DNA from: Gyromitra esculenta
Lineage: Eukaryota > Ascomycota > Pezizomycetes > Pezizales > Discinaceae
Length of the DNA stretch: 64,000 nucleotides
Assembly: GCA_038503075.1 (NCBI GenBank)
Contig: JBCAML010000019.1
Location: forward strand, 868,001-932,000
Direction of reading: 5' to 3'
Shown here piece after piece: positions 5,200 to 62,364 of this stretch. The translations under genes and the position numbers were made by a program. The first letter of the stretch is position 1; the number at the start of each line of letters is the position of its first letter. The notes under the pieces are model-generated. The model was not told the origin of the DNA and did no database searches. It saw only the letters and a program-made list of their open reading frames with translations.

Positions 5200-6588
5200 A
5201 TGATCAAGTCGATTTTCTACTCCCACTTTCACCCTGCAATAGGTACGTCTCCACCCTCTCATATGTCACTCATGCTAACTCCAATCAAGGCCCCAAGGTA
5301 GTCTACCAGGTCCCCGATGGCTCTGTAACTACGGGTTCGCACTCTACCTCCCCACTTTTCGATTTTGACACCGTTTCCGAATACATCATCCCAAAACAAG
5401 AGCTCTGCGACCGGCTCGTTACAGTCTGCACGAACAAATACCGGATCCTTGGGTACCCGGTAGTTCTCGAGGACCGTAAATATGAACGAAACAGGTTCAT
5501 ATTCAATTTCGCGATCGTGCTAGATGAAGATGTCGAGTTCAGCACGTATAAAAGCGTCGTGAGGAAGGTCGCAAAGCTTTTCAAGGCGCTTGAAGAACAG
5601 AGTGGATTCTTGAGTAATGAGGTTACAAACGCTGGGGTTTATGCGCTTATTGAGCAGGTTATGGAGGATTTGAATAATTATTCAGAGTGCATGATTCCAA
5701 TCAGTACGGTTTTCATGCTCTGTGACCTACTGGTGACGTGGTGACGGAAAACTAACAAGGGCGCACTAGATGAAAGCAACACGATCAATATCAAACTGTT
5801 CCCTACATACGCTCCTCCTCCACCTGTTAAGCCTTATTATGTACCATTATGCACGGTCCAGTTAGAGCTGCTAATGGATGTAAATTGGGATTTGACAATG
5901 CAGAAAGTTCAATCCCAGCCCTTCACCACAAAAAGTCACCTCCACTAACGAGTACAGATCGTTCCATTCATCGACGGCATCAACTCCGTCAAACGAATAG
6001 CGGAACTTGCTGACGCCGATTATACCCTAACCAAGAAATGCATAGAACATCTATTGTGAGCCCTCAATTCTCAAGAGAACTAGACACCAGTATATCCTAA
6101 TGCATGCTCCTAGATACTATGGTTGTCTCGTAATGGTCGATCTCTTCCAGTTCTCTGCCATATACGCCTGCACAGCCGAGATCTCATGTCTTGTTGCCGA
6201 TGTTTCCCTGCAGGAAGAATGCCAATCTTACGTTTCTTCATCGGGGCCTTCAGGCCCGAAAATGCCCTTCCCACAACTTCTTCAGCTCTATACATCACTT
6301 ACGCAGGGTCTTACGCTGAAGAAGTGGTGTATTGAGAACGCGTCTAAGTTGGGTGAGATTGATGTGAGGCGGTTTATTAGTTTTGGTGTTGTCAAGGGAT
6401 TTTTGTATAGGAGTCATCGATATCCAGTTCCGGGAGAGGGGAAGAGAGTAGGGGAGGGGAGAGGGGAGCTAGCGAGATGGGTGGATGGGGGGAGGCATTT
6501 TGATGAAATTTGTACGGATTTAGGGGTAAGTGAAAGGGAGGTTATGGGGATGCTGGATGGATGGGACGTACAGATTGTGCACAGATAG
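5200..6588 (+). CDS. NPR2: Nitrogen permease regulator 2 (NPR2/NPRL2), GATOR1/SEACIT subunit
   Basis: Five exons by eye: 5200-5242, 5290-5703, 5770-5906, 5958-6055, 6114-6588; 388 residues, all junctions in frame. The protein begins MIKSIFYSHFHPAIGPKVVY, the signature start of the NPR2 longin domain, continues with IPKQELCDRLVTVC and KYRILGYPVVLEDRKYERN, and ends in winged-helix-like segments (RRFISFGVVKGFLYRSHRYP). Family knowledge: NPR2 pairs with NPR3 and with DEPDC5/Iml1 to form GATOR1 (SEACIT), which turns down TORC1 at the vacuole when amino acids are low. An upstream in-frame ATG at 5176 exists; 5200 is chosen because family members start at this motif. It is shorter than the yeast protein, which has long inserts. 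The gene looks intact. Confidence 0.9.
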
Positions 6589-8410: not shown

Positions 8411-11278
8411 ATGAGATTTACTCACTTTTCTACTGCTGCTTTACTTTCCAGTGCTGCTTCTGTTTCTGCCCAAGCTACATATGGGAAGGGGAAAGCAGGT
8501 ATCAACAAGCAGGATGCAAAAGCTCAATATATTCCAGGGAGGTTTATTGTAGAATTTGCAAAACCTAACGATTTTCGAACCGCGGAAGACGTGAGTATCT
8601 TCATTCCTTATTTTATTTCAAAATGCGAATCTTAGAGCATAGCTAATAACGTGCATTTTATAGCCTCTTGAGAGTTTTTACAGGGTTCTCTCGGATAACG
8701 ATATCGAGGCCAGACCAGCAGTGAATATCACATCTTCAATATTCTCGGGAACTTCATTCGACACCAACAATTCAACAAAGCCTGAAGAAATTCTGGCTTT
8801 GGATGAGGTACTCAACATCTGGCGTGTACGGAGGGTACCACGACCCAACCCGCAAATTCATGCCACTGGAGCTCAAGCTGAGGGAGCAGCTGTGTGGACC
8901 AGCCATGGTAAGCTCTAAAATCTAGGTTAATTATGAGCGATCTTCTAACTTTTCCAAAGCAAATACTGGAGTTCTCCAGCTTCATGAGCAAGGATTTTTA
9001 GGAAAGGGGGCTGTTGTAGCAGTTGTGAGTCCCTTTAGTAGCTTCATACTCTAAAATTATAATAGCTTACACCCATCAGGTTGATACTGGTACCGACTAC
9101 ATGCACCCCTCGCTTGGCGGTGGATTTGGTCCTGGCTTCAAAGTTGCCGGTGGCACTGATATTGTGGGCGACAGATACGCTGGCGCTGCTTTCTTCCCAG
9201 ATAAAGATCCCTACGATTGCGTTGGCCATGGAACTCACGTTGCTGGTATTATTGCTGGCGAAGACAAAGATTTCGTTGGCGTGGCCCCCAAAGCAACCCT
9301 CAGATCCTATAAGGTTTTTGGATGCAACTATGGTTCCACGGGTGACGATGCTTTGATCCAGGCGTTTGTCACTGCCTACGAGGACGGCGCAGATGTTATC
9401 AATGCTTCAATCGGCGGGCCTGGCGGATGGCCAGAAGACGCGTGGGCGGCAGCTTCATCCAGAATTGCAGACCGGGGTGTTTTCATTGCAATCTCTGCTG
9501 GAAATAGTGGAGACGAGGGAATTTGGTATCCGTCATCAGGAGATGTTGGTAATTCTGTCACCGCAGTAGCTTCAATCACGAATGAGCAGTATATCGCTAT
9601 GTCGACTATCATTGAGGGCGTCAATGGAGCTACACGGAATGTGGGTTATCTCGACAAATCTGCGCAAGGTTTCGCTCTTAAGGGCAGAGTTCCGGTCTAT
9701 ATCCTTTCCCACGACAAAAACGTTGCCAATGATGGATGTCTCCCACTTCCCGATGATACTCCAGACCTTTCAGGATACCTAGTTCTCATCCGCCGTGGAA
9801 CATGTACGTTTCAAACTAAGGAAAATAATGTCGTCAACTATGGTGCCAAATATGTTTGGTTCTACAACTCCCGCACCACCCCCGTTATTTACCCTGATAT
9901 TACCGCTTCAGTCTCTGAGGGTTACGCTATGATCACCGCCGAAGACGGTGAATGGATCGTTGACCAGTTCAAGGCTGGAGGAAACGCAACCATAACCTTC
10001 CCTAATACTCCCGAGAAGAGTGCTATCGATAACACCCTAAGCGGTGGGAAACTTTCTACTTTTACTTCATGGGGACCTACCTTCGAGGCTCAGATTAAGC
10101 CCGAGATTGCGGCGCCAGGTGGATACATATATGCAACCTACCCATTGAATCAAGGAGGATATGCTATTCTTTCTGGTACATCCATGGCCTCCCCTTACAT
10201 TGCTGGTGTCGCAGCACTTTACATGGCTGCGCACGGTGGCCGTTCCAGAATGGGTGGTGAGGGTGTCGCTGAATTGAAGAGAAGGATTATCACCTCCGGA
10301 ACTCTTATCAACTGGAATGACGGGAGCGTAACCGATTGGTCTAAGCTCGCCCCTGTTGCTCAGCAAGGAGCTGGATATGTGAACGCTGAGAAGGTTCTTA
10401 ATTATGCTACATCTCTCTCACCTGGAAAGCTCGAACTTAACGACACCGCATACCTGAAGAGTGATCACTACATTAACATCAAGAACTCTGGCACGAAGGA
10501 AGTCGACTACTTCATTACTCACGAGCCCGCCGCCACTGTCAACTCGTTTGAAGTAGGCTATATCACCCCACAGATTTTCCCACCTACCTTCATCAATAGT
10601 ACTGCTACCGTCAAGTTCACCCGTACAAATGTGAACGTCCGTCCCGGTACTACTAATTCCTTTAAAGTCACTATCACGCCCCCTGTGGTGGACTCAAAGC
10701 TTTTCCCCGTCTACTCTGGTAAGATCATCGTCACCGGCACCAACGGCGAAGTATTGTCTGTCCCTTATTTGGGCATTGTCGGTAAACTCTACGATGTTAA
10801 ATCTTGGGACATTGACAATGGGTGGCCACTCATCCTCAAAGATTCCGACGGAACAGAGATCACCGGCCCCGCAAACTTCACACTGAATGGTATGGACCGC
10901 CCCGCTGTGGCAGTTGTTAACAACTTTGGCTCTGCCGAGACCCGTTGGGATATCGTTGAAGAGAATTGGGCACCACATGAATGGAGATACCCTCCTGTTC
11001 CGGGACAGAACAAATACGTTGGATCAGTCGTCACAAAGGATGAAGGGCTTGAGTTCCCACTCCACTATCAACCACGCAACGGACCTAACGAGGATGCCTG
11101 GTATAATTATTACAACTGGGCAGGTGATCTTGCGGACGGAACGAAGATCGAGCCTGGGAAGTATCACTTCCTCCTTCAAACTCTAAAGGTTACTGGGCAA
11201 AAAGCGAGGAACTCAGATTGGCAGAGGAAGTTGAGCGGCGTTATCACTATTCTACCTTCAAACTCTACTAGGCCTTAG
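8411..11278 (+). CDS. Secreted subtilisin-like serine protease (S8, with PA insert and C-terminal Fn3-like domain)
   Basis: Exons 8411-8590, 8664-8907, 8960-9024, 9080-11278; 895 residues, all junctions in frame. The start gives a signal peptide (MRFTHFSTAALLSSAASVSA). A propeptide-like region follows (PGRFIVEFAKP). Catalytic residues are visible: Asp165 in VDTG, His213 in GHGTHVAG, oxyanion Asn305 in SAGNSG and Ser531 in GTSMASP. A protease-associated (PA) domain sits between His and Ser at about residues 365-470 (LVLIRRGTCTFQTKENNVVNYGAK). The last 300 residues look like the Fn3-like domain of lactocepin/C5a-peptidase-type subtilases. Several N-x-S/T sites fit a secreted glycoprotein. Likely role: extracellular protein degradation for nutrition or host interaction. 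No breaks seen. Confidence 0.93.
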
Positions 11279-15286: not shown

Positions 15287-15775
15287 TACAAATATAACCT
15301 CTTGATGCGTGCATGCACATACAGAGTGCATGTAGAGTACCGTACAAACTCGTGGAATTCGACCTGACGCAAGTGCAGCACTAGCACAAAGTCGGCAAGT
15401 CTTTTCGTGACTTACATGCGGAATTGTGACTTTAGCCACAGAAAAATTTCTGGTTTAAGGATAGCGCTTCATTAGCGAATTTCACGAGTTTATACGTTAT
15501 GTATGACATACATGTATTCTACACCGCCAGGCTGATCTTGCTTATTAATTTCTATTCGAACCATAAAGGGTAACGAAAGTAACGTTTTACAGGCGACCCC
15601 TTTGTCCCCGGCATTTGGGGCATCCCCACCATCAGCATTTAGGGCAATATCGACAAACAAACCTCCCCGTTATCGCCTCGTGCAAAACCTGTCCTCCTTT
15701 CACGCTATACGAACCAGCTAAGGGCTATTACTGGACTAGGCGAGGCCATTGCTATCAATTGACAGATTATTCACA

Positions 15776-17109
15776 ATGCTCGAAGAATCCAAAATCTCCA
15801 AGCTTATCACCCAGCACCGGCCAGCCATGAGCTACTACGAAGACCTGTACCGAAGGCTTCACGCCAACCCCGAGCTTTCCAGGCAAGAGAGTGCAACCGC
15901 TGCCATAATCGCAACCCATCTAAAAACGTTAGATGGGTTTGAAATCCGTGGTAACATCGGTGGCCATGGTGTCGTCGGGGTCCTCAGGAACGGCGCAGGT
16001 AAAACCGTACTTCTCCGAGCCGACATGGATGCGCTGCCCCTGAAAGAGCAGACTGGCCTAGAGTATGCAAGCACCAAGAGGATGATTGATATAGCGGACA
16101 ACATTGAAAAGCCGGTAATGCATGCGTGTGGTCACGACATGCACATATCGTCTTTGCTAGCTGCCTCGGAGCTTTTACATGCGTGCCGAAGCTCCTGGTC
16201 CGGTACGCTCCTCGCCCTATTTCAACCGGACGAGGAGCATGGCGCCGGCGCGCAAGCTATGATCGATGATGGGCTGTATGATGAGAAGAAACACGCCGTT
16301 CCAAAGCCGGATATTGTTCTCGGCGGACACGTTATGCCCGGGAGAGCAGGGCAAATTAGCACCCGTGCGGGAGTATTTAACAGTGCAGCAGATAGCTTTA
16401 TAGCGACACTATATGGCCGCGGTGGCCATGGGAGCCGGCCGCACACAACGGTCGACCCCGTGGTGCTAGCGAGTAGCACGGTGCTACGGCTGCAGACCAT
16501 TGTGAGTCGAGAGACAAATCCTCAGGAAGCCGTGGTAGTCACTGTTGGATCCTTGCAGGCTGGGGCTACGGAGAATATCATTAGCTCAGAGGCAACTATG
16601 CGGATAAATATGAGGACGCTCAGTGCACCATCGCGAGCGCGTGTCAAAGCAGCTATTGTGCGTATCATCAAGGCCGAGTGCGAGGCCTCCGGTTGCCCCA
16701 AACCACCACTGATACAGCAGACGGGTTCATATCCTCTACTCTACAACGATGAGGCTGTTACCGAAATTGTCGCACAAGCAATGAGGGGTCATTTTGGCAA
16801 AGACTTTGGGACAAATGCGCCGATCTCAATGGGGAGCGAGGACTTTGCAAATTTAGCCGATCCAGTATCGGCGCCAGGCTGCTTCTGGACTTACGGAGGG
16901 ATCGATCTACAGCAATGGGATGATGCGGAGAAGAATGGAAAACTTGACGAGATTCCAGGTAACTAATTCTGACCTGTGACACTATCGCAAATTACTAATA
17001 CCTCGTGCATATAGGCAATCATAGTGCATCCTTTAGACCCGTGATTCAACCGACTTTGACAGTTGCTATTGATGCTTTTGCTACTGCAGCATTGGCGTTC
17101 TTAATTTGA
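15776..17109 (+). CDS. M20D metallopeptidase-family amidohydrolase (hippurate/IAA-amino-acid hydrolase type)
   Basis: Two exons, 15776-16958 and 17015-17109; 425 residues. ATG at 15776 has a good context (TCACAATGC). Metal and catalytic residues of the M20D family are visible: HACGHDMH (Cys118, His120), the glutamates in FQPDEEHGAGA (Glu153/154), His185 in LGGHVMP, and the C-terminal His in NHSASF. That last ligand comes from the short second exon, so splicing is needed for activity. The dimerisation-type insert is at GRGGHGSRPH. No signal peptide, so probably cytosolic. Family knowledge: these enzymes hydrolyse N-acyl or N-aryl amino acid amides (hippurate, IAA conjugates, N-acetyl amino acids). 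Substrate cannot be told from sequence. It converges on the gene at 17777-20056. Confidence 0.92.
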
Positions 17110-17776: not shown

Positions 17777-20056
17777 TTATGATCTGTTTTCGTCAAAGCA
17801 ACCCTCAATCTCCGCTCTTCCGAGACTATACCCTCTACAGAACTCTCGATGTTGGAGTTCATTATCTTTGAGCTCTTCTAGGCAGGTTTTCAGGCTGTCT
17901 CGCTCTCTACGTACTATCTGCCCTAATAGGTCTCTACTGATAGTAGAGAGCAGTGTGGACGATCTCATTGCATCATGCAAATCCACAAATGCCCACGCCA
18001 ACCCTATCAATAATCCCGTATTCCCAATCGGCCGCATAGATGAGTGCAACATCATGAGCGCAAACTCTGAGTGCCAATTCCCTAGAACTTCTTTGAGAGA
18101 TTCCGGTTCTGGGAGCCCGTAGCTCTTCATCATTTCCAGCCCAAGCTCAACAAGACCTACGCTCTCTGTTCGACGAACTTCGTCCATGCCGGCGACGCCG
18201 GGAGTTTCAAGACCAAAGCCAGATTGGGCACGCAGAAGACGGAGGATCGAGCAGACGGTTTTGGAGGTAGTTTTGGCGGGAATGCTGATGAAGGACTCGA
18301 GGAGGCATGGGTGGGTGAACCAGAGGGGAAGTAATTTTTCCATGTTTGGAGTTGTGGTCATTTTGATAGCGGAGCTCAAGACTGGAAAAGGCAGTGTTGG
18401 AGATGACAATGGTTGGTCTGGGAGGTCGCTGATTAAGATTGGCGAAAATACTGGGTAGTCGACGCAGACATCTTGATTTTGAAAGAAATTAATAGACGTG
18501 ATCTCGGTTTGGCCGGTGAATGACCAGTAGAGTCGTGGATCAGGACGTCCTAAGGAGTCAATCCATCGCTGGACGGCCTCGACCTCGGTTTGTGTGAATG
18601 ATCCAAACATCCTTCCCTCCCAAGATATCTCTTCGATTAGTTTGCTCCTTTTGCTATCACCCTTGTATACCCAAGGTTTCATATTGCTCAGATCATCTAG
18701 AAACTCCATTTGCCACTGCTTTGAAGCAAAAGAATTTGGTTCAAGCCAATTGACCAAAGTCCGACGCCCAATCTTCATTCTACTGCTGCAGTGTATTTTG
18801 TGTGCTACAGGCGCTTTGGCTTGGAATATCTTGACTACTTCGGCTTCGTGTTCGCTGCGGGGGAAAGAGTCGACGGCAGGCTTTTTCTGGGATGGACAAT
18901 CGGGTGTTGAAGAGAGACCTTGAGAGAGAACGAAACCTGCCTGAACACGTTTCCAGGCTTGCTGAGCTGCGACATCTCCCTGCACCCTCTGTATGTACTC
19001 GATATATCCAATTACGGCTTGCATTGCTATCGCTGTGTGACCTGAATCGGCGTTGTCGATGGAAATATGGAGGAGGAAGTAATACGCATTTATCTTTAAT
19101 TCCTTAAGTTCTCTGGAGACCTTCAACGTCTCTAGTGCCACCCCTTCAAAATGCATATTGAAACCGAGGATCTCTGGTAAGAACTGATGCGGGAAAAGAG
19201 ATATCAGTAGTTGAGCGGTTGCTGCTTTCCAGGAGCATAGTTCGTCCATTTTGTGTCGTGGATGTATATAATCGGCGGCGTCACCAGCCGGTAGCCCAGG
19301 CTCAAACCCTTTCATCAGCTCATGATAGATATGAACGTGATTCTTTTCCAAATCTCCATCTCCCAGTTCTTCCGATAGTACTTGCCAAGCGTCTTTTGCC
19401 GTTCGACGGAGAGCAAAGGGGGTCGTGATTTTGTTGATGTGGCCCAACCAAGCACCATCGACAAATTTAACGGGAGATATCTGTTTGAGCCACCATATAG
19501 CTTCTTCTCTGTCCTTAAACAGCTCTCTCGAGCATCCCGCCCTCCTGCCTGCCAAATACTTTTCCCATTGCTGAGCGATCTTGTCGTTATCGTTTCGCAG
19601 GAAATTTGCCAGATTCTCTCGTGAGTAATTTTCGATCGACAGGATTCCGGTTTCCGGTTTCTTGCGCGCATCTGCAAGCGTTTCCGAGAAAAGTGAGATC
19701 AATAAATCTCTCGCTTGCGGTAAAATCTCTGGGTATTTCTCAAGATGTTGCAGTTTGAAATACAAAGTTTTGTAGAGTTGCACCTCCTCGGCTTGGTCGC
19801 CGTCTCGTTTCTCCTCTGGATCGGATACGTCTAGAATCGCTGCATCCTTTTCGTCAGAGGAAGTTTTAGCTATCAATATCAGGCTACGTGGTAACTCACC
19901 TTCCTTCTCTTTAGCTCCCTTCCTTAAAAAGAGCCTTACTTTGGTTTCGTGCGTTCGAATAACCGATAACGTAGAAATAAAGAATGCAAACATGACGATT
20001 GAGAGCGCCTGCGGAAAAGACATATCGATATTGATTTCGAGAGGTATGATTCTCAT
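17777..20056 (-). CDS. Membrane-anchored heme-oxygenase-like (iron-containing redox enzyme family) protein
   Basis: Single-exon gene of 759 residues starting at ATG 20056. A hydrophobic segment at about residues 13-33 (SFPQALSIVMFAFFISTLSV) looks like a signal anchor. The middle (about 185-350) resembles the heme-oxygenase-like fold of the Haem_oxygenas_2 family: an EELGDGDLEKNH stretch (Glu229/230, His240) and DNADSGH (Asp334/337, His340), which fit the Glu/His and D-x-x-H pattern of di-iron HDO enzymes. The C-terminal 400 residues are unrecognised. Family knowledge: HDO enzymes use a labile di-iron centre for oxidative cleavage or N-oxygenation. The reaction here is unknown. The gene is intact. 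Alternative: a non-catalytic HO-fold protein. Confidence 0.72.
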   Translation of the reverse strand: MRIIPLEINIDMSFPQALSIVMFAFFISTLSVIRTHETKVRLFLRKGAKEKEGELPRSLILIAKTSSDEKDAAILDVSDPEEKRDGDQAEEVQLYKTLYFKLQHLEKYPEILPQARDLLISLFSETLADARKKPETGILSIENYSRENLANFLRNDNDKIAQQWEKYLAGRRAGCSRELFKDREEAIWWLKQISPVKFVDGAWLGHINKITTPFALRRTAKDAWQVLSEELGDGDLEKNHVHIYHELMKGFEPGLPAGDAADYIHPRHKMDELCSWKAATAQLLISLFPHQFLPEILGFNMHFEGVALETLKVSRELKELKINAYYFLLHISIDNADSGHTAIAMQAVIGYIEYIQRVQGDVAAQQAWKRVQAGFVLSQGLSSTPDCPSQKKPAVDSFPRSEHEAEVVKIFQAKAPVAHKIHCSSRMKIGRRTLVNWLEPNSFASKQWQMEFLDDLSNMKPWVYKGDSKRSKLIEEISWEGRMFGSFTQTEVEAVQRWIDSLGRPDPRLYWSFTGQTEITSINFFQNQDVCVDYPVFSPILISDLPDQPLSSPTLPFPVLSSAIKMTTTPNMEKLLPLWFTHPCLLESFISIPAKTTSKTVCSILRLLRAQSGFGLETPGVAGMDEVRRTESVGLVELGLEMMKSYGLPEPESLKEVLGNWHSEFALMMLHSSMRPIGNTGLLIGLAWAFVDLHDAMRSSTLLSTISRDLLGQIVRRERDSLKTCLEELKDNELQHREFCRGYSLGRAEIEGCFDENRS

Positions 20057-24268: not shown

Positions 24269-25214
24269 TCAAAATTTAATCGCCTTCTCCGGCCGCAAGA
24301 AGTACGCCACAAGGAAACGTTTCTGGGTGCCATCAATTGGCTGAGTGACACGATGTACACACGAATGGAGCCTTTTCCCCGACAAAGCGTCCAGCGAGTC
24401 GGCGACATTGATCATGGCACACCCAGCTTTCGGCTCAATAAACGCCCATTTCTTCGTCTCGGGCAGCTCTAATTCCGTACCCCACAGATCGCAGAAGAGA
24501 ATCGTCAGGGTGCCACTATCGGTGTGCTCACCCCCAACGACATCAGTAACAAGATTTTGGCATGGCTCATTCATCAACTTAACGCCGCTGTCGCTGGGCT
24601 CGCCTTCACGATTGCTATTCTCGAAACGATCGGTGCCTTGGAGGTTGAGTGCATCGGACAGGCAAGAAAGCATCTTATGAGCGATGTAATGGGAGACCGA
24701 GCCGAACCGTTCAAGTAGCTCTGCATCTTCTTGGAGGATAGCAGGAAGCACAAGTGTCTTTTGAATCACTTCATCGCGTGCAACCTAATGCATGTCAATA
24801 AAGCTAACTCCGAAAATTCGCAGAGATACCTGCCTCGAAGCTGCTATATATTTCCCCTGGCTTGTAGCTACGCCAAGTGTGTCAGCACTTATCTGCCCTA
24901 GAAATCTCAATCTCAATCACAACATACCCACGGTCTTCGGTCTCCCTATAGTCCTTCATCTTCAGCTCCTGGGGCTGATTAAAGTACTTCTCGGTGACAG
25001 CATATAAACTCTGCACATCTGCGAGATACTGCTTTGTGGAGTCGCTCTGAAGATCAAGGTAGAAAAATCCAGGGTTTTCAGCGGCCTTCAAAAGTTTTTG
25101 AACTTCGGCAGGCTCGTTGGAAACAAGGCGCACGAAATCAATGACTTCAAGGGAAGCAGTTTCAACCGGAGTGCTACCGATCATGGTGGTATACGAAGCA
25201 GCGGTAGGAGACAT
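24269..25214 (-). CDS. 2-oxoglutarate/Fe(II)-dependent oxygenase (isopenicillin-N-synthase-like)
   Basis: Model on the minus strand: exons 25214-24928, 24867-24834, 24784-24269; 278 residues. An N-terminal DIOX_N-like region (VIDFVRLVSNEPAEVQKLL, then GFFYLDL) precedes the 2OG-Fe(II) core with HTD (His194, Asp196) and His251 in HSCVHRV as the iron triad. Arg263 in RFLVAYFLRP is the likely 2OG-binding arginine. Intron 1 has a GTATGT donor and a CTGAC branch point. Intron 2 keeps frame only with a GC donor (GAG|GCAGGT), which restores FEVARDEV, a conserved family segment. Family knowledge: fungal members hydroxylate, desaturate or epoxidise small molecules, often in secondary metabolism. Substrate unknown. 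It diverges from the TyrRS-GNAT gene, with 1.57 kb between them. Confidence 0.82.
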
Positions 25215-26780: not shown

Positions 26781-29065
26781 ATGTCAAATCCAGAGGATGC
26801 AGAGCAGAGGTTCAACCTCATGGCTCGAGGGCTACAAGAATTTCAAGGCCAGGATATAATCAAGAACATCTTGGCCGAGGGCAATAGCCCGAAAGGCATT
26901 TGGGGTACGTATACTATCCAGTTACGTGCCTAAGTATGGATAGAACTGTCAACTAAAACATCGAGCAGTAACGGTGCCCACGGGGAGACGTGAGTGTAGA
27001 AGCTTTAATGGCCCCTCAATTGGCTAGCACTGAGAGAATAGTACAGCACATTTAGGTTATCTCGTCCCGTTGGCAAAGATGGCCGATTTCATACAGGCAG
27101 GATCAGAGGTATTTAGACTCTTCCTTGAGTTTACTATGGATTGTGTTGATCTTTTTGAGCACAGGTTACTGTCAGCCTTGGAGGTAAAAAATCTTAAATG
27201 AACGTTGTGAGTAAATATACTGAACGTCTATCTGTAGACATCTACGGATTCCTCATCAATTACATACACTCGTGGGAGGTTGTAGGCTACCGTGCAAGAT
27301 TTTATCAGTTCGTCATGACCGCTGCCTTTGAGGCGGTTGGTGTCCCGGCTTCAAGCGTACGCTGGGTGAGGGAATCTACCCACCACCTGGAACGGGAAAA
27401 CGTTCTCGATAACTACAAACTTTTGGCACTAGTGTCTCAACGTCAGGCCAAGGAAACCGGAGATGAACTCATCAACAGCACTATGCTGGGTCCACTGCTC
27501 ACCCCTAGTTTACAGGCGCTGGATGAAGAGTACCTCGGATCTGATTTTGATTTTGGTGGAATAGACCAGGTAAATAATAGAACCGTAATGTTTATTGTAG
27601 TACTCTGATTGACACCCTCTTGAAAGCTTGGACTCTTTAATTTCGCCGAGAAATTCCTTCCTGAGCTCGGCTATAAAAAACGCGCTCATTTGATGAACGT
27701 AATGCTCCCAGGACTCACAGGAAGCAAGATGTCAGCCTCCGACCCAAACTCCAAAATTGACCTCCTCGATTCCCCGGAAACAGTTTACAATAAAATCACT
27801 AAAGTGGACTGCGAAGCGAGTGATGTCGTCGAGAACGGCATTTTATCTCTCGTCAAAATACTCTTGATCCCTATCAGCAAGGTTCGGTTGGAAAGAATGA
27901 AGGGCAATGTAGCTGAAAAACTCACGGGACGCCAAGGCACTATAGGAGATCAACGCCCATTCATCAGTGCAGATGCTCCAGAAGGCACCGTATTCACCAT
28001 CCAATTGGATTCAAAGGGTGGAGACGTGCTTAAACACTACAAGTCGTACGATGAGGTTGAGCGAGACTATGTGGAGAAGCGACTGTCTCCTGAAGCACTC
28101 AAGAATTCAGTTATTAGTGTTGTGAATCAGTTGTTAGTTCATATCCGCAAGTCATACGAAGAGAATGAGGAGTGGCAGGCAATTGCGAAGCTAGCTTATC
28201 CTGATGTAGAGGCAGAGTAAGTTTTAGATCCATCGTAAAACCAATAACGGTTAGTTATGAGACTGAGAGCTAACACTTCCAGGACCACGCCAACTGCAGT
28301 AATAAATTTCTGCCTTCCAGTTCGGGAGCTATCCAATGAGCGTGTCAAAGTAACACCTTTTATTGTGAGTCCAGCTATCACTGAACCAATAACAAAATTT
28401 ATATGCTAAAGATCCACTCCAATAAGCCTCCAATCCATGCTCTTAGTTTCTTCAAGCAATCACGACTGCACCCAGAGCTATATGCTCATTTACCAGTTGG
28501 CCCATACGTTACAACAAAAGACTTTGTGGATAACTTTATCGATAGAATGATACATCCAGATCCTACCATGACGCTATACGCTATCATCGACAAGACGCGC
28601 CCTCCTACCAAGGAGGACAAGGACGGAGCACTAGCTGGTATTATTACCTATATAAACACTTCGACAACCAATCTATCCACCGAAATAGGCTACGTAATCA
28701 TCTTGCCACCCTATCAGAAAACACATGTCACCACAAATGCCGTCGGGCTCATGCTCCAGTATGCGTTAGAGCCCCCGTCGAATGGTGGTCTAGGACTACG
28801 ACGAGTTGCATGGCAAACAAGCTCTGCGAATACCGCTTCCATACGTTCTGCTGAGAGGTTGGGATTCGCAAAGGAGGGAGTGCTAAGGTGGGATCGAGTA
28901 TTTCACGAAGGTAGAACTAAGGGAAAGACCGGGAATGGTCGTAAGATGCCTCCAGGTGATGATGAAAACTTGGGGAGAGATACGGTCGTGTTCAGTCAGT
29001 GTTGGGATGACTGGGAACAAGGAGGGAGGGAAAAGATGCAAACCCGCATGGATAGGCGTAGTTAG
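26781..29065 (+). CDS. Tyrosyl-tRNA synthetase paralogue fused in frame to a GNAT acetyltransferase domain
   Basis: Eight-exon model: 26781-26904, 26969-26989, 27035-27108, 27165-27183, 27238-27569, 27627-28216, 28283-28364, 28412-29065; 631 residues, every junction in frame. Residues 1-386 are a eukaryotic/archaeal-type class I TyrRS: HLGY (54-57, HIGH motif), LQALDEEYL (171-179), FGGIDQ (185-190), KMSAS (224-228), and the usual core ending at AYPD. The stop codon after VEAE overlaps a GTAAGT donor; a 66-nt intron with CTAAC branch point and TTCCAG acceptor leads into a RimJ/RimL-type GNAT (LPVRELSNERVKVTPF; EIGYVIILPPYQKTHVTTNA; SIRSAERLGFAKEGVLRW). Alternative: two genes, TyrRS ending at 28220 and GNAT starting at ATG 28257, only 36 bp apart. 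Pocket residues differ from normal TyrRS (Ile40, Thr168). It is probably not the housekeeping enzyme. Confidence 0.7.
28217..28282 (+). other. Intron joining the TyrRS and GNAT parts
   Basis: GTAAGT donor, CTAAC branch sequence 12 bases before the end and a TTCCAG acceptor. Removal skips the TyrRS stop at 28218-28220 and keeps the frame. If retained, translation ends after the TyrRS, so splicing could switch between the short and long proteins. Confidence 0.6.
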
Positions 29066-45998: not shown

Positions 45999-47315
45999 AT
46001 GGGGCGAGGACCCGCTAAGGACAAGGCTATCGCCCTTGCGCCCGCCACTGCTGTGCACACCAGCAACGACCTGGACGACCTGATCCGCAAACGCGACGCG
46101 GTAAGCACAGCACAACCCCCATCTCTGCCTGCCTCTCCCTGAAAATACCCCCCCACGCCGTTGTCGTGATCCCTCCCAGCCCATGACGCGTCGCTGTTGG
46201 CTTGGTCTTGCCATAATAATAGTCGACTGCCCATCGCGTGCCTCGTTTCCGCTTTTCTGCTCGTGCTGACATTTTGATAATGCCCCCCAGTTCGTCACCT
46301 CAATGACCCTGCTCCGCAACGCTGCCGAGGGCGCGTCCCGTGCTGGGCTAGCCTACTTTGACCACATTATTGGCACGGCCCCGAACGGTGACCACCCCTT
46401 CGCCTTCCAGCGCGGGGTCTCCGCGCCTGTTCGCGCCATCACCGAAGAGCCAGAGGCCGGCATGAAACGCACTCGCCGCAAGCGCGAGAAGCGGGATCCA
46501 GACCTCCCAAAGAGGCCCATGACCGCGTATCTGCTGTTCTGCAACGACGGCAGGGAAACCGTCAAGAAGGATTTAGGTGAGAACGCGACACATAAGGAAG
46601 TCATTGCGGAGCTCACAAGGCGCTGGGCGGAGGTGCCGGAGGAGCAGAAGAAGGTATGTCACCCATCTATTCTATTTTTTTTGCACGGAAACTTTAACTG
46701 ATTGAATTTTTTTTTCTTTCTCTTTTTTTTTTGTGATAGGCCTGGCAAGATCTATATCAAACGAACCGTGCGGTCTATGACAAAGATCTCGCAGAATACA
46801 AGGCTTCCAAGGACCCCCACTTCAATGCCATCCCCTCCGCTGCTGCTGCCACTCTCGCCGCTGCTGCTGCCCCCGCTGGCGGGTTTACAGCCGTCAACCA
46901 CACCGAGACTACCGGCGACTCTGAACCCGAGTCCGAGCCCGAGCACGAAGAAGAACCTGTTCCTGCACCCGCCAAGGCCCCCGAGCCTGAACCGGAACAA
47001 GAATCGGAACTCTCTGAGGCCGAGGAAGAAGTGCTTGAGGAAGTCGAGGAGGAAGAGGAAGAGGAAGAAAAGTCTCCTTCCCCGCCCCCTAAATCCCCAA
47101 CCCCACCCCCCAGACCTAAGGCCACCCCGCGCGGAAAGAAGGGCGCGGTCAATGGCACCAAGAAGACACCGCTCCCGGCAAGCCCCCCTAAGGAGAAAGA
47201 GAAGAGGAAGCGAACGTCCACCAGGAAGAAGGCAGCGGCAGAGGAAGAAGCCGTGGTTGCCGAAGAGAGCCCTAAGAAGAGGGGAAAGAAGAGAAGAAAG
47301 AGTACCGGTGATTAA
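45999..47315 (+). CDS. HMG-box DNA-binding protein
   Basis: Three exons, 45999-46100, 46291-46653 and 46740-47315; 346 residues. The HMG box spans about residues 103-175: DPDLPKRPMTAYLLFCNDGR, then KKDLGENATHKEVIAELTRRW and AWQDLYQTNRAVYDKDLAEY. The intron between exons 2 and 3 splits the box after EEQKK, a usual place. After the box come an Ala-rich stretch, a long Glu/Pro-rich acidic region (EEVEEEEEEEE) and a Lys/Arg-rich tail (KKRGKKRRKS) that looks like a nuclear localisation signal. Family knowledge: such NHP6/HMO1-like proteins bend DNA and act in chromatin. The N-terminal 90 residues are unrecognised. Start at 45999 is the first ATG after a C-rich leader. Confidence 0.88.
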
Positions 47316-49164: not shown

Positions 49165-52100
49165 TTATTTATCACTCTTAGTCTTCCACAGTTGTAGTCC
49201 CTCAGCCATCTCTTCGACCGAAAAATGATCTGGGCTCACCCAATCTGCGTCGGCGTAGATATTTTTAGTGATGGTCATTTTCCCTGCCGCGATCATCTCG
49301 CTGCCTAATTCTGAGAGTTCTGGGTACACAGCGGCGGTGGGTTTGGGGTCTTTGAAGACCGATACATCGGATGCCCTCCCCTGACGAAAGAAGTTGGGCT
49401 TCTTCAACTCAGCGGCACCAAAGGGCTGCATCGAGATTTCCGAGGCGTCACTCACATATAGAACTGCACCACTCTCAAGGTCACTTACCAAGTGAGCGAG
49501 GGAATGTTCAGAGGTGACATTATCAGCCGAGTGTTGAATATTAGGTGCACGGAGGAGCATGCAGTCGACATGCGCTTGCTTCGGGGTGCCGTAGAGGTAA
49601 AACGGCATTCCGTTCACGGGGTAGCTGGGCCACGGTACTTAGCGCGTAGGTCTTGCTGCTTCAAAATACGTACGCTGGTGACTTCCACTTCCTTGACAAG
49701 ACTCATTCTAAAGTATTTGGGATTAATAAATCTTGCAAAATGATCGTTGGAAGTGATACATACCCATCACCATAATTGATATCTGCCTTAAAAGTTCCTT
49801 TATCTAGGATATCTGGAAGTTTCATTTGTCAAGCCTTCAAAACGAACGGGGTTCCGGGACAAACCTTTCTTGCCTCGACATATTTCTCCATGACTTTGGT
49901 TTGAGTTTTGGCAGTGATAATGAGCTGTTGGCGATTCTCCGCCTCGTAGAACAAGGGTTTGTACACAAGATAAAGCTTCTTAATACCTTGCATAACGAAG
50001 GTATGGTCTGTTTCGTCGACTGAAACGCTTTCTGCAATACTAAGTAGTCAGTATAGAAATATAAAAGATGAATTTTGAAGTCTAGGAATAGAAAAACTGC
50101 GATCACATACTGCGACCTCCTCTTTCACAGCCCCTTTAAAGATCTCGGCTTACTTCGCGATGAAATTCCTTTCAGTCGGGAATGGTGATATTGTTACACT
50201 GCTTACTGTTTACTATTTCATTCGGCAAATCCAACCGTCAGGCTATGGTGTTCTTGACGCACAAGCAAAATACACAACACAAACAAACCAACACCCAAAT
50301 AACAAAACAAAACAAAACAAAACTCAACCCAAATCAAACGTACGCTCATTCGCCTACCATCCCCATTACTCTTCTTCACACGCCCTCTGTTCTTCCGCAT
50401 GACCTATAGGCATCGTTACGTTCCTAGGAACAAATAGATCCTACCACCCTTAAGTCTAAGGCGCTCCTTGAAATTAGTCGCACAACCGCCATATTCATGT
50501 TGTAGAAACTCGATGGATGTGAGAAAGAAGGGAGCTTTAGCAGGTAGCTTATTAGGCGACGAAGTTGAGGTTACTTGCTTCCTCCACGGCGTCGTTTAGG
50601 GTTCCCATCAGGAAGACGGAAATTGCCCGCAAGCACATTGACGATCAAATCTGAGCCAAGAGCGCCGAGAAACCTCATCGCTTTCGGGCTCTGTCTTACT
50701 TCCCAGTTGTTCTTGCCAAGGATAAGTTCACGAATAGCTTTCCTCTCCTCGACCTTGTCTGGAGTTGAACCTTTGGCTTCTTCTGATGGAAGCATATTAA
50801 AGGGATAACTACGAAGTCCTTGTTATCCATAGTGGTCTAATGGACAAACAGCCATAAGGATAGGAAATATTAACAGTTGTTCACTTGAGAGTTGGTGTTT
50901 TGACCAAGCCTCGGACTTACCCTGCTACATGTGAGCATAGTTTCGCTGAATAGACCGCCATACCCCCTTTCGTTTAGGCCGATGACATTATGGGACAGGG
51001 AAGCTGCACCTACAGCAGCACCAGGCTTACTAGTAGTCATACAAAGAAAAAAAGAGTCAGCTTCTTGTGATTCCTAAGACCGACGAAAAAAGAATACAAG
51101 TTCTTACCCTTCCTCAGCGCCGTAAATCCCGATGCTCTCGGCGATAGGATCCTTGGAGACGTATGGGGCTGTCTATGTTACTAGATATTTCATTATGTTG
51201 CCCTGGTAGCACAGTGCGCTGGCTGAGTATGGAATATACCCAGTCTTGCGCGGGTCAATAGTTACAGAGTCAGCACGACATTGATGAAGTAGCTGATTTG
51301 TGGTATTCCCCCGTAGGGGGAGGTGAAGACTCATAATCACCTGGATCTTTGAAGGAGGCTTTTGGGAGTGTGGCTGCAAAATAACCTCCCCAAACGGGGT
51401 CGGCGTGAACAATGGAAGATATGTCTTTTTCTTAGAATTTCTCACGGAGCTCGACGACCTTGGCAAGAAGATCCACGACACCCTCCTCTGTCGTGCCAGT
51501 AATTGCTACCACCGCATATACTACATATTTTTCTTTGAGCTGTTCGTTCAAAAGCCGTTCTAATTCTTCAACGTCGAGGCGCCCGCCGTTATCAACATGG
51601 ACGTCGACAACGTTGTTAGAACTGATACTAGTGATAGCTAGGTCCACCAAGATCTAGATTAATTTCACCTGAGGCATAGTAGTATGATTCTAGCACTCAC
51701 CGGCACCCTTGGGCCACAAATAATGCTTAGTGGCTGAAACCATATACTGTATGGGCAAAATCCTAAATCCCTTCCCGAAGACGTCGTTTCCAGCTGATTG
51801 GATACTATAATTTTCTGAAACCTTCTGCCAGTAATGTGATGAGACGCCATACTCCTTTTGAAACCTTTCGGGGATATCCAGGATCATGAAAACTTTAAGG
51901 TTAAGTAGGTCCTACATATACATGCTAAATTTATTGAATAATTTTGGCTCGCCGCCTTTGTAAGTTTCAGCCTTGAGAGTATCGGAGATGAACAGAACAG
52001 TGTGGTCCGCGAGGCATGGCCGCTCGAGGCCTCGACTCGAGCCAGTACGAGGTTGGGAGCTCACGAGCACGAGGTGCCTCGAGGCATGTGTAGCTGCTCG

Positions 52101-52992
52101 CCTCGAGCCGCTCGAGCATTCAAGTTAAATCATAAGTTGATTGTTGTTTAGACGAGCCTGTATGTCCCAGGACCGTTACTAGGCATGATTGGTGGAAAAA
52201 AAATAGCTATAGTTTGGGGGATGTTTCTAGCGAAACAGCGTGACTTTATAATATCCTAGCTAGTGGCTCTTTTTTTTAAAACTTTTTTAGTATATATCTC
52301 GAGTTTATCGAGCCACCTCGAGCCGACTCGAGGCAGCCCCCCCATGTGCTCGAGCTGCTCGAGGCAGGCCCTCAAATGTACGAGCGGCCTCGAGGCATAC
52401 CCATCCGCTCGCCTCGAGGCGCCTCGTGGACCACACTGGAACAGAAGTTCTTTTTACATAGCTTTCTTAAGTGAAATTGGGCAGAACTTTAAATTTCGGG
52501 CTAGAAAAGGTAGTAGCTTCTACTGGTCGTGCGAAAATCGTAAATAAATGAAAAAAAAAGTTGCATATTTGAATTTTACCAGTCTTATAGACCATAGTTA
52601 GCGCCAATCAAACTATTGTTGATAACCATTCGCTTTTTATATCAAGCAAAACGTAAGAATTTGCTTACAACATCGACTCCAAGCTAGCTACCATTCCATC
52701 GCGTGTGATGTGACTCCATGCAACTGGTAGGCCTTCCGGGTTCTCTGGATCGAGATTGTACCTGAGCATTGTGCAAAGCTGCCCACCAACCATCATCTCG
52801 AGCAAAATGGTGATTGGGTTGGTCTTGATAGTGACGCTATTTGGATTGTGGAGCATAGTCGTTGAGTAGCCTAGGATGGCTAACATACAGGTATCACACG
52901 TCATATGTGAACCGTAAAGAGTTGACTAAAAAGGGATTGAATTCTTGTTGAGAAGATTGGAAAGCCTATCAGCGCAGTTTTCGAGTTTTGCT
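49165..52992 (-). pseudogene. Group II PLP-dependent decarboxylase (tyrosine/glutamate decarboxylase-like), degraded
   Basis: Read on the minus strand. Family segments in order: KLENCADRLSNLLNKNSIPF, LGYSTTMLHNPNSV, GGQLCTMLRYNLDPENPEG, HITRDGMVASLES, ARNLKFCPISLKKAM, LDIPERFQKEYGV, VYAVVAITGTTEEG, IVHADPVWGGYF, TIDPRKTGYIPYSA (the Lys is the PLP lysine), GSDLIVNVLAGNFRLPDG, FYLYGTPKQAHVDCMLLRA. In-frame stops lie at 52926-52928, 52454-52456, 51912-51914, 51432-51434 and 51173-51175; frameshifts near 51285 and 49625. The stops at 51912 and 51173 replace tryptophans (TGG to TAG) and that at 51432 fits CAA to TAA. A 441-bp MITE interrupts the exon at 51998-52438. The usual His before the PLP Lys is Arg. 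Normally such enzymes decarboxylate aromatic or acidic amino acids. This copy is dead. The 5' end is not resolved. Confidence 0.85.
51998..52438. mobile_element. hAT-type MITE inserted in the decarboxylase pseudogene
   Basis: 441 bp, with ends CAGTGTGGTCCGCGAGGC and, on the complement, CAGTGTGGTCCACGAGGC. A perfect 8-bp target duplication GAACAGAA flanks it (51990-51997, 52439-52446). CAGTG ends with an 8-bp duplication are diagnostic for hAT. The subterminal regions are packed with CTCGAG/CCTCGAGG motifs on both sides, probably transposase-binding sites. No transposase frame. Confidence 0.92.
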
Positions 52993-60452: not shown

Positions 60453-62364
60453 TTACTCATCTTCCACACCACCCTCCTTCTCCTTCTCCACAAGTTCGCC
60501 AAGCCCGCCAAATATACTCCCCGCCGGCAGCCGTGTGATGTTCTCATCAAACACGGGACCAATTGAATTCATCCATTTCTTTCGTCGTTCCATCAGGGTA
60601 CGTGCAGCCTCGCCGATACCGACGCGAGCCTGCGCGACGCCGACGCCATTGGGTACTGATTTTTTCTTCTTTGTAGCTTTCATATTACGAGTTCGTTTCG
60701 AGTATGCTTGTTCGACCTATCGACCAACGAGGGTTAGTATAAGACAAAAATAGTTGGTGGGACAGAGGGGGGGAAGGATACCTGTTTATCTAGATCATCT
60801 AGTATGGTCGCATATTCTTGGTGAGCCAACTGCTCTTTCAATATCTCGGCGATTCGTGCCTTCCTAGCTCCGTTGATTACGCTCTGTTCTCGTAGCTCTT
60901 TCTGTAGCTCTCTCAGCTTCGCACTGACATCGTCGTCTTCCCGCGCTTTCCAGTCAGGCTCGCTATTGGTGCCCAGCAGTCCAATATATTGCATCTCCTT
61001 CTGTAATCGCTCTTCCAATGTATGGTAATCGCTCTTCCCCACAGGCACCTTCCACGCGGGCCCCATCACCTCCGGCACTGTCGTCGCTGATGGCGCCGAC
61101 GGCAGTGCTTCGGTTGGTGACGGCGGATCTGGTGATATCGGTGTGTCCTCCGGGATCATAGCGGCCAAGATGCGGCTCAGTAGCGGGCCGCAGGAGACGT
61201 CTGAGGTCTCCAGGAGATCGTCAGATAGCTGGTCTGCAGAGCCACGCGGGATATTCGGGTTACCAGTGCTGCCGCGGGTTACACCTGAGAGCTCGCCGGC
61301 GCCATCTTCGGCGGCCCAAACCTCGCTGTAGTGTGCACCGAGTGTGGGCATGATGTAGGGTGTGCTGCGGTCGCCGCGCTCGCGCAGGAAGCCGAGGTCT
61401 TCCTCTGAGAAAGGCCGGAAGTAGGCATCGATGTAGGTGTTGAAGGTGTTCATGGCAACTTGGTTGGAGGGCTTGGCTTTGGAGAAATCTTCGTCGGGGG
61501 GGTCGCCGGGGCCCAGGGGGGTCAGGTCGATGGTTGGAAAGCGGGTGACAGAGAAAGCACGTGCTTTGGCTTCGTAAGTCCAACCCGTGGTTGAGGGTGG
61601 GATTTCGTATACGGTATGATCATCCGCCAGGGTTTCGGTGATGGTGTAGGGGGGTGCTGGGGGCGGTTGGTGAGAGGGCGGTGAGGTGCGGGATTGAGAC
61701 GGGGAGGGGGGTGAGGGTTTATGTTTTTTCTTTTCACCTAAATCAGGAGATTAGTGGCGTGAGTAGTAAAGTGGAGAGGGGAGGAGCGACACGAACCCTT
61801 GATGATAACGTCAGAGGGACCCTGGTCTGCGGGCTGGTGGGCACCGACTGCCAGTGGACGTTTACCATCACCGGAGGCCTTCTTCTCCTTCTTTTTCCGA
61901 TGATTCTCCTCCTTGACTTTATCTCTTGCTTCCTTCCGCTCACGTTCCTCCTCGTCCTCCGCCGCCTTCCGCTTCTTCTCCAACTGCTCTGCCTCCATCG
62001 CCGCAGCCCGTTCTTTCTCTTCAATCTTCTTAGCTTCAATTTTACTACTTAGCTCGCGAAGTGCACCATCACAAATCTCACCACGACCCTTCGCGGTTGA
62101 GCCTAGTGACATAAGGTCCGAGAGGAGCGAGGTCAAGCTCGCGGCGGCGGGTATCGATGAGATTGAGTCGGGCGAGTTGTTGACGTACCTATCGAGGACC
62201 TCGTCGTAGTTGACACGCAGGGGCTCGAAGGAGGATAGATGGGTGATTTCGGAGAGCGCTGAGGCGGGAGTTGTGTTACGAGAGCGAGAACGGCGTTGGG
62301 AACTGGCGCCGCCTGGACCGCCGCCGCGAGTCTTGCCTTTGCCTTTCCCGCCTTTCCCGGACAT
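60453..62364 (-). CDS. NGG1: ADA3/NGG1, SAGA histone acetyltransferase module subunit
   Basis: Three exons on the minus strand, 62364-61797, 61737-60782 and 60716-60453; 595 residues, in frame throughout. The N-terminus is basic and Gly-rich (MSGKGGKGKGKTRGGG), followed by a long charged coiled-coil stretch rich in EEKERAAAMEAEQLEKKRK. The diagnostic C-terminal Ada3 domain is clear: SDYHTLEERLQKEMQYIGLL, REDDDVSAKLRELQKELREQ, HQEYATILDDLDKQVEQAY, KRTRNMKATKKKK, ARTLMERRKKWMNSIGPVFD and SIFGGLGELV. The intron after LDDLDKQ sits inside this domain. Family knowledge: Ada3 bridges Gcn5 and Ada2 in SAGA/ADA and is needed for nucleosome acetylation. Intact; single start ATG at 62364. Confidence 0.9.

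What the first reader, a model, noticed from the sequence alone, without database searches (positions are those of the whole stretch)
26781..29065. Tyrosyl-tRNA synthetase fused to a GNAT acetyltransferase
Seen: the TyrRS catalytic core ends at its normal place (AYPD), its stop codon overlaps a canonical GTAAGT donor, and a 66-nt intron with CTAAC and TTCCAG joins it in frame to a complete GNAT whose first strand (LPVRELSNERVKVTPF) has no convincing promoter or start of its own. If they were two genes they would be 36 bp apart on one strand, too close for separate fungal transcription units. Known: fungi have an AspRS fused to a GNAT-fold DUF2156 domain that moves aspartate from tRNA onto ergosterol, and bacterial LysX fuses LysRS to an aminoacyl-transferase domain. 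Inference: this may be a different aaRS-GNAT machine that uses an aminoacyl-tRNA or aminoacyl-adenylate as donor or acceptor. The GNAT here is RimJ/RimL-like, not DUF2156-like, so acetylation of an aminoacyl product is equally possible.
Basis: partly seen in the sequence, partly recalled or inferred. Interest (0 to 1): 0.88.

Follow-up and report, generated by a model that had tools for sequence, protein, structure and literature searches.

The report
Fungal TyrRS-like enzyme fused to acetyltransferase
A fungus carries a relative of tyrosyl-tRNA synthetase, joined to an acetyltransferase and lying near two iron-oxygenase genes, that seems to have left protein synthesis for a small-molecule pathway we could not find described.

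Summary
The fusion is supported. Eight exons encode an uninterrupted 622-aa protein: TyrRS-like domains, then a GNAT. Six of 120 listed homologues (Orbilia/Arthrobotrys, Phlyctema, one unnamed) share the architecture at 45-60% identity over 98-100% of the length.

It is not an ordinary second TyrRS. HIGH, KMSAS, Asp173, Gln170 and Gln188 are kept. Near-invariant canonical residues Tyr39, His77, Gln124, Tyr166 and the anticodon-contacting Asp308 are replaced in 7 of 7 fusions. Five clade members tested fail NCBI's TyrRS cut-offs; five canonical enzymes pass. The genome has a canonical TyrRS elsewhere.

Nearby lie a heme-oxygenase-like diiron protein (HDO) and a 2-oxoglutarate oxygenase, each the only copy detected. 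Linkage recurs, judged from locus tags: HDO two tags from the fusion in Orbilia javanica; the oxygenase adjacent to the TyrRS paralogue in Drepanopeziza.

Best reading: a biosynthetic enzyme that adenylates a non-tyrosine amino acid without reading the tRNA-Tyr anticodon; the GNAT acetylates the activated amino acid or product. Substrate, tRNA independence and GNAT role are inference. The GNAT lacks a conserved stretch in Phlyctema and is absent from the Drepanopeziza proteins.

The parts
26781..29065 (+). TyrRS-like-GNAT fusion gene, 8 exons, 622 aa
   Evidence: gene model; six fused homologues; Pfam
26781..28216 (+). exons 1-6: TyrRS-like catalytic domain (HLGY, KMSAS kept) and C-terminal (anticodon-binding type) domain
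   Evidence: fold of the homologue P0001
28217..28282 (+). intron 6 at the domain junction; if retained, translation stops at TAA 28218-28220 and gives a TyrRS-like-only protein
28283..29065 (+). exons 7-8: GNAT domain (PF13302), RimJ/RimL-like; intron 7 is 28365-28426
28257..28259 (+). alternative in-frame ATG that would start a separate GNAT gene (judged unlikely)
24269..25214 (-). 2-oxoglutarate/Fe(II) oxygenase, 278 aa, 3 exons (25214-24928, 24867-24834, 24784-24269) spliced by hand, second intron read as GC-AG; HxD, second His and Arg conserved
17777..20056 (-). heme-oxygenase-like diiron protein (HDO; PF14518), 759 aa, intronless
15740..16963 (+). open frame of an M20-type amidohydrolase (passes TIGR01891); possible but untested member of the gene group

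Best explanation
This is a biosynthetic enzyme derived from a duplicated or acquired tyrosyl-tRNA synthetase. The class I active site still forms an aminoacyl-adenylate, but of an amino acid other than tyrosine, probably one made or modified by the neighbouring HDO and 2OG oxygenase. It no longer reads the tRNA-Tyr anticodon, so it most likely works without tRNA-Tyr. The C-terminal RimJ/RimL-like GNAT acts on the activated amino acid or its product, most simply by acetylating the alpha-amine with acetyl-CoA. Shown by sequence: the joined reading frame and its fused homologues, the altered active site, the loss of residues that contact G34 and the repeated linkage. Inferred: adenylation activity, substrate class, tRNA independence and GNAT chemistry.
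For: (1) Conserved fusion: P0001-P0006 cover 98-100% of the query with both domains; the seven fusions plus two Drepanopeziza paralogues form one clade, support 100/100. (2) Catalytic residues kept: H49, G51, K222-M223-S224-A225-S226, D75, Q170, D173, Q188 in 9 of 9 clade members. (3) Specificity residues changed in 9 of 9: Y39 (111 of 112 canonical) is I/V/F; H77 (112) is Y; Q124 (110) is H/S/C/A; Y166 (112) is T/C/V; K190 (112) is G. Residues 39, 77, 166, 170 and 173 contact resveratrol in the human active site (PMC6207623, passages); Tyr32 and Asp158 of the archaeal enzyme, the equivalents of 39 and 173 (equivalence recalled), bind the tyrosine hydroxyl (PMC9499402, passages). (4) Anticodon: D308 (109 of 112) is A/E/T in the fusions and S/A in Drepanopeziza; no clade member has an aromatic at 283, though the alignment is gappy there. 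Their archaeal equivalents (recalled), Asp286 and Phe261, contact G34 (PMC10135938, passages). (5) NCBIfam TyrRS cut-off 220 bits: window 148.9, P0001 162.5, P0003 161.2, P0006 147.3, P0009 144.7 fail; five canonical enzymes score 272-292. (6) A canonical TyrRS with Y39, H77, Q124, Y166 and D308 is on contig C2. (7) Linkage from locus tags and equal contig lengths: O. javanica HDO TWF718_009157 and fusion TWF718_009159; D. brunnea TyrRS paralogue LZ554_002960 and 2OG LZ554_002961; Diplodia corticola HDO and 2OG. HDO, 2OG and GNAT are each the only copy detected in this genome. [quoted passage not shown]
Against: No activity, product or transcript was seen. Loss of the G34 contacts does not by itself show that tRNA is not charged: the passages of PMC10135938 report a giant-virus TyrRS that lacks the loop with Phe261 and works better, and a D286R change that improves charging of a suppressor tRNA. 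The C-terminal domain is retained. The NCBIfam models are built for bacteria and archaea, so failing them is suggestive only. The Phlyctema GNAT lacks the QxTHVT stretch of the other fusions, although it still passes PF13302 (31.2 against 25.4 bits), and the Drepanopeziza proteins have no GNAT, so the GNAT may not be essential everywhere. The Orbilia HDO linked to the fusion belongs to a pair of rows split off within the Orbilia group, so the linkage was not simply inherited with the HDO. No Orbilia 2OG homologue was among the 36 hits. HDO relatives occur in fungi for which one search listed no fusion.
Confidence: 0.55

Rival explanations
1. tRNA-dependent transfer machine in the style of ErdS: the synthetase half charges a tRNA, by the acceptor stem only or a different tRNA, and the GNAT half moves the aminoacyl group to a lipid or metabolite.
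For: The C-terminal domain is retained. A TyrRS can lack part of the G34 contact loop and still work (PMC10135938, passages). ErdS shows that fungi use such an architecture (PMC9437257, passages). GNAT enzymes can take groups from donors other than CoA: SbzI from a carrier protein, and SbzC, for which CoA did not serve (PMC6331615, passages).
Against: The Asp that contacts G34 is replaced in 7 of 7 fusions. The GNAT is PF13302, not DUF2156. The GNAT is absent from the Drepanopeziza proteins and lacks a conserved stretch in Phlyctema.
Confidence: 0.25
2. Self-resistance copy: the gene group makes a TyrRS inhibitor and this is an insensitive TyrRS that keeps translation running.
For: An aaRS paralogue beside biosynthetic genes can be a resistance gene; the SB-203208 cluster was found by looking for one (PMC6331615, passages).
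Against: A resistant TyrRS must still bind tyrosine and tRNA-Tyr. Tyr39, Tyr166, Gln124 and Asp308 are all replaced and the TyrRS cut-off is failed. It does not explain the GNAT.
Confidence: 0.07
3. Two separate neighbouring genes, the GNAT starting at ATG 28257.
For: The ATG at 28257 is in frame with the GNAT and the TyrRS frame has its own stop. The Drepanopeziza protein P0009 ends at the junction.
Against: Six homologues are predicted as fused at the same place. The ATG lies inside a well-formed intron.
Confidence: 0.04
4. Non-catalytic or regulatory TyrRS-like protein.
For: aaRS-like proteins with non-catalytic roles are known, such as HisZ (PMC9437257, passages).
Against: HIGH, KMSAS and D75, Q170, D173 and Q188 are kept in 9 of 9 clade members, which relaxed selection would not be expected to preserve.
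Confidence: 0.09

Closest known systems
Cytosolic tyrosyl-tRNA synthetase (eukaryote/archaeal type)
   Same: Fold (yeast 2dlc, Foldseek E 1.5e-31, TMt 0.92, for the model of the homologue P0001), HIGH/KMSKS motifs, D173, Q170, Q188; most of the closest named standalone relatives listed are basidiomycete TyrRSs
   Different: Y39, H77, Q124, Y166, K190 and anticodon residue D308 replaced; fails TyrRS cut-offs; followed by a GNAT
ErdS (fungal AspRS-DUF2156, ergosteryl-aspartate synthase; PMC9437257, passages)
   Same: A fungal aaRS fused to a transferase domain
   Different: AspRS and DUF2156 in ErdS; here class I TyrRS-like with the G34-contacting Asp lost and a PF13302 GNAT
Cryptococcus TyrRS-SAICAR synthetase fusion (PMC4301749, passages)
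   Same: A fungal TyrRS with a C-terminal enzyme domain
   Different: Different partner domain
Bacterial cupin/MetRS-like hydrazine enzymes (PMC11705231, passages and cited titles), MshC and SbzA (PMC9437257, passages)
   Same: aaRS-derived enzymes in small-molecule pathways; the hydrazine enzymes join an aaRS-like domain to a second catalytic domain (recalled)
   Different: Bacterial, derived from MetRS, CysRS or IleRS; no GNAT fusion known to me
RimL / MccE acetyltransferase
   Same: RimJ/RimL-type GNAT; appears to acetylate the alpha-amine of aminoacyl-adenylates (PMC3817062, passages)
   Different: Not part of a synthetase; a detoxification role; the relation here is only at family level

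Membership tests
Tyrosyl-tRNA synthetase (functional equivalog) | Score over the curated NCBIfam TyrRS cut-offs (NF006330 220 bits, TIGR00234 113.8) | tested here: not met
   Window 148.9 and 81.3; P0001, P0003, P0006, P0009 also below both; P0015, P0010, P0053, P0120 and the genome's own C2 enzyme above both
Tyrosyl-tRNA synthetase (functional equivalog) | Class I HIGH and KMSKS motifs | tested here: met
   HLGY and KMSAS in the window; corresponding residues kept in 9 of 9 clade members
Tyrosyl-tRNA synthetase (functional equivalog) | Tyr39 and Tyr166 of the tyrosine site | tested here: not met
   Ile and Thr in the window; 0 of 9 clade members have either Tyr; canonical 111 and 112 of 112
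Tyrosyl-tRNA synthetase (functional equivalog) | Asp recognising G34 of the anticodon (human 308; M. jannaschii 286, equivalence recalled) | tested here: not met
   Ala in the window; 0 of 9 clade members; canonical 109 of 112
Tyrosyl-tRNA synthetase (functional equivalog) | Charges tRNA-Tyr with tyrosine | not testable with these tools
   Needs an enzyme assay
ErdS-type aaRS-transferase | AspRS plus DUF2156 domain | tested here: not met
   Only PF00579, PF13302 and PF00583 reach E 0.001
GNAT (Acetyltransf_3, RimJ/RimL-like) | Score over Pfam cut-off for PF13302 | tested here: met
   43.4 bits against 25.4; P0001, P0003 and P0006 also pass
GNAT (Acetyltransf_3, RimJ/RimL-like) | Binds acetyl-CoA and acetylates an amine | not testable with these tools
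   QxTHVT stretch present in the window and five of six fused homologues, lost in P0006
HDO (neighbour) | PF14518 domain with conserved Glu/His/Asp metal ligands | tested here: met
   118.4 bits against 28.9; E230, E231, H241, E296, E305, E317, H331, D335, H341 invariant in 125 of 125 aligned rows, numbering of the 760-residue frame; which of them bind iron was not tested
2OG/Fe(II) oxygenase (neighbour) | HxD...H and a downstream Arg | tested here: met
   H194 and D196 in 32 of 32 rows, H251 in 31, R263 in 30; their roles are recalled

The most novel reading that the evidence does not exclude
A new class of fungal natural-product enzyme. A TyrRS-derived, tRNA-independent domain activates a non-proteinogenic amino acid made by an HDO/2OG pair, and the fused GNAT uses that adenylate directly, as acceptor or as acyl donor, to build a previously unknown amino-acid metabolite.
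Probability: 0.32. Interest if true: 0.85.

Novelty: new variant of a known kind. Interest (0 to 1): 0.72.

Why it matters
Sources name five of the six fused homologues 'tyrosine--tRNA ligase' (P0002-P0006), which hides what looks like a biosynthetic enzyme. If right, it would be a eukaryotic class I synthetase recruited to metabolism and fused to an acetyltransferase, with a small, recognisable gene set (HDO, 2OG oxygenase, TyrRS-like) that can be searched for and expressed. It would also give a natural example of a TyrRS active site rebuilt for another substrate, which engineers of synthetases now make by hand.

Tried and rejected
Self-resistance TyrRS: judged unlikely because tyrosine-site and anticodon residues are replaced. 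Two-gene model: judged unlikely on six fused homologues. Bacterial relatives of the GNAT: one scan of prokaryote genomes with a four-row GNAT alignment found none, but it used only two narrow patterns, so it is uninformative. Structure of the GNAT exon alone: poor model (pLDDT 49.4), not used. The HDO has no convincing relative among solved structures by sequence (best E 0.069, unrelated). Prior description: full-text searches (listings seen, not every paper counted) and passages of PMC9437257, PMC4301749 and PMC11705231 (no occurrence of 'GNAT' in any of the three) showed no TyrRS-GNAT fusion; the library lacks most subscription papers. Origin of the synthetase half: it shares an insert with basidiomycete TyrRSs that human TyrRS and this genome's own TyrRS lack, which hints at transfer, but no other ascomycete canonical TyrRS was sampled and the tree joins two long branches, so no claim is made. 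On rechecking I lowered the best explanation from 0.60 to 0.55 and the novel case from 0.35 to 0.32, and raised the tRNA-dependent rival from 0.20 to 0.25, because passages show that a TyrRS can lose part of the G34 contact and still charge tRNA. I also withdrew a claim that P0001 is an intron-free frame: its DNA was not seen.

Full report
WHAT IS THERE. The window lies on contig C19 of a 47.1-Mb genome in 23 contigs. Its intron-rich genes and their fungal homologues mark it as a fungus; no name is given. Reading exons from 26781 to 29065 gives 8 exons and 622 residues without a stop. The intron at the junction (28217-28282, 66 nt) has, by eye, the best donor and branch-like site of the seven introns: GTAAGT, CTAAC 13 nt from the end, CCAG. 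If this intron is kept, translation stops at its second to fourth bases, so a TyrRS-like-only form is possible. Pfam finds tRNA-synt_1b at residues 44-356 and Acetyltransf_3 at 423-557.

IS THE FUSION REAL? The protein search found 1448 hits and listed 120. Six of the 120 (P0001-P0006) cover 98-100% of the query and carry both domains: Orbilia oligospora (two clusters), O. javanica, Arthrobotrys conoides, Phlyctema vagabunda and one unnamed source (P0001, 60% identity). They are predicted proteins; I did not see their DNA. Two Drepanopeziza proteins (P0009, P0011) are close relatives that end near the junction. A tree of 31 rows puts the seven fusions and two Drepanopeziza proteins in one clade (100/100), with Drepanopeziza beside Phlyctema, so the GNAT was lost there or was cut off by annotation.

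WHAT THE SYNTHETASE HALF DOES. I aligned the window protein, the six fused homologues, the two Drepanopeziza paralogues, 112 other hits (P0007-P0120 without P0009 and P0011; those with names are mostly basidiomycete), the genome's own C2 TyrRS and human TyrRS. Kept in 9 of 9 clade members: H49 and G51 of the HIGH-type motif, KMSAS, D75, Q170, D173, Q188. Replaced in 9 of 9: Y39 (111 of 112 canonical), H77 (112), Q124 (110), Y166 (112), G163 (112, now Pro), K190 (112, now Gly) and D308 (109). At position 283, where 95 of 112 canonical rows have F, Y or W among the residues listed, no clade member has an aromatic, but the alignment is gappy there. Positions 39, 77, 166, 170 and 173 contact a ligand in the human active site (PMC6207623, passages). 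In the archaeal enzyme Tyr32 and Asp158 bind the tyrosine hydroxyl, and changes there accompany new substrates (PMC9499402, passages); Asp286 hydrogen-bonds anticodon base G34, sandwiched by Phe261 and His283 (PMC10135938, passages). That these match human 39, 173, 308, 283 and 305 is recalled, not computed; the placing of Q124 and K190 near the substrate is also recalled. His305 is Ser in the window but also in the genome's canonical enzyme, so it tells nothing. The same passages of PMC10135938 report a giant-virus TyrRS that lacks the Phe261 loop and is more active, and a D286R change that helps a suppressor tRNA, so these losses show altered anticodon reading, not proof that tRNA is unused. 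NCBIfam TyrRS models, built for prokaryotes, reject the window, P0001, P0003, P0006 and P0009 and accept the five canonical enzymes tested, this genome's C2 enzyme among them. Inference: an active adenylating site with changed specificity that does not read the tyrosine anticodon in the usual way.

THE GNAT HALF. It passes PF13302. The best solved relative is 3pzj, named only a probable acetyltransferase (E 1.1e-9). It is the only copy detected in this genome. The window and five of six fused homologues keep a QxTHVT stretch where GNATs bind CoA (that placement is recalled); Phlyctema does not, though it still passes PF13302 (31.2 bits against 25.4). The GNAT may therefore matter in some lineages and be decaying in others. 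The best functional analogy I found is RimL and MccE, which appear to acetylate the alpha-amine of many aminoacyl-adenylates (PMC3817062, passages); the fusion would put such an activity next to an adenylate-forming site.

THE NEIGHBOURS. An HDO of 759 aa lies at 17777-20056 (-), and a 2OG/Fe(II) oxygenase at 24269-25214 (-), 1.6 kb from the start of the fusion gene. The HDO has nine Glu/His/Asp residues between positions 230 and 341 that are invariant in 125 of 125 aligned rows, and the oxygenase keeps its HxD, His and Arg in 30-32 of 32. Each is the only copy detected in the genome. In O. javanica an HDO (P0237, TWF718_009157) and the fusion (P0003, TWF718_009159) share a contig length of 2,940,744 and lie two tags apart. 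In D. brunnea the TyrRS paralogue (P0009, LZ554_002960) and a 2OG homologue (P0269, LZ554_002961, 38% identity) are adjacent tags with contig length 3,294,124. In Diplodia corticola a 2OG (P0255) and an HDO (P0273) share a contig length of 213,826. These linkages are read from locus tags and contig lengths, not from DNA. Against a simple story: HDO homologues are widespread (870 hits, 120 listed), many in fungi for which one search listed no fusion; the linked Orbilia HDO belongs to a pair separate from nine other Orbilia-group HDOs, while the window's HDO lies nearest P0121 and Morchella; and one search listed no Orbilia 2OG among its 36 hits. The linkage is therefore recurrent rather than simply inherited. 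An M20 amidohydrolase frame at 15740-16963 (TIGR01891, 244.8 bits against 153.75) could remove an acetyl group, but its linkage elsewhere was not tested.

MECHANISM AND ODDS. I hold that the enzyme adenylates a non-tyrosine amino acid in an HDO/2OG pathway without reading tRNA-Tyr, and that the GNAT acetylates the activated amino acid or product (0.55 for the whole statement; the GNAT step is the weakest). A tRNA-dependent transferase gets 0.25. The rest is shared by a non-catalytic role, self-resistance and two separate genes.

NOVELTY. aaRS paralogues in metabolism are known (MshC, SbzA, the MetRS-like hydrazine enzymes, ErdS), so this is a new variant of a known kind. A TyrRS-like-GNAT fusion was not found in the searches listed under Tried and rejected, within an open-access library only.

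Noticed in passing
window 49168-52950, - strand: Scattered frames that look to me, by eye, like a broken PLP-dependent decarboxylase with an inserted repeat; three frames of this stretch and its surroundings gave no Pfam match.
   Followed up: partly
window 46270-46698, +: HMG-box domain (PF00505, 4.4e-8) in a GC-richer stretch with long frames on both strands.
   Followed up: no
P0209, P0212 (Orbilia oligospora): HDO proteins annotated as joined to part of a class I/II aminotransferase: either a second fusion or two neighbouring genes merged, hinting at an aminotransferase beside some HDOs.
   Followed up: no
window 28217-28282: Retaining intron 6 would give a TyrRS-like-only protein, and the Drepanopeziza protein P0009 ends at the matching place; alternative splicing may make two forms.
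   Followed up: partly
window 27627-28216 against basidiomycete TyrRS: The synthetase half shares an insert (RLER...DAPEGTVF) with basidiomycete TyrRSs that human TyrRS and this genome's own TyrRS lack, hinting at transfer between phyla.
   Followed up: partly
window 9029-11275 (+), 6046-6585 (+), 60737-61750 (-): Subtilase with PA and Fn3-like domains, an NPR2 piece and an Ada3 piece: ordinary-looking genes around the region.
   Followed up: no
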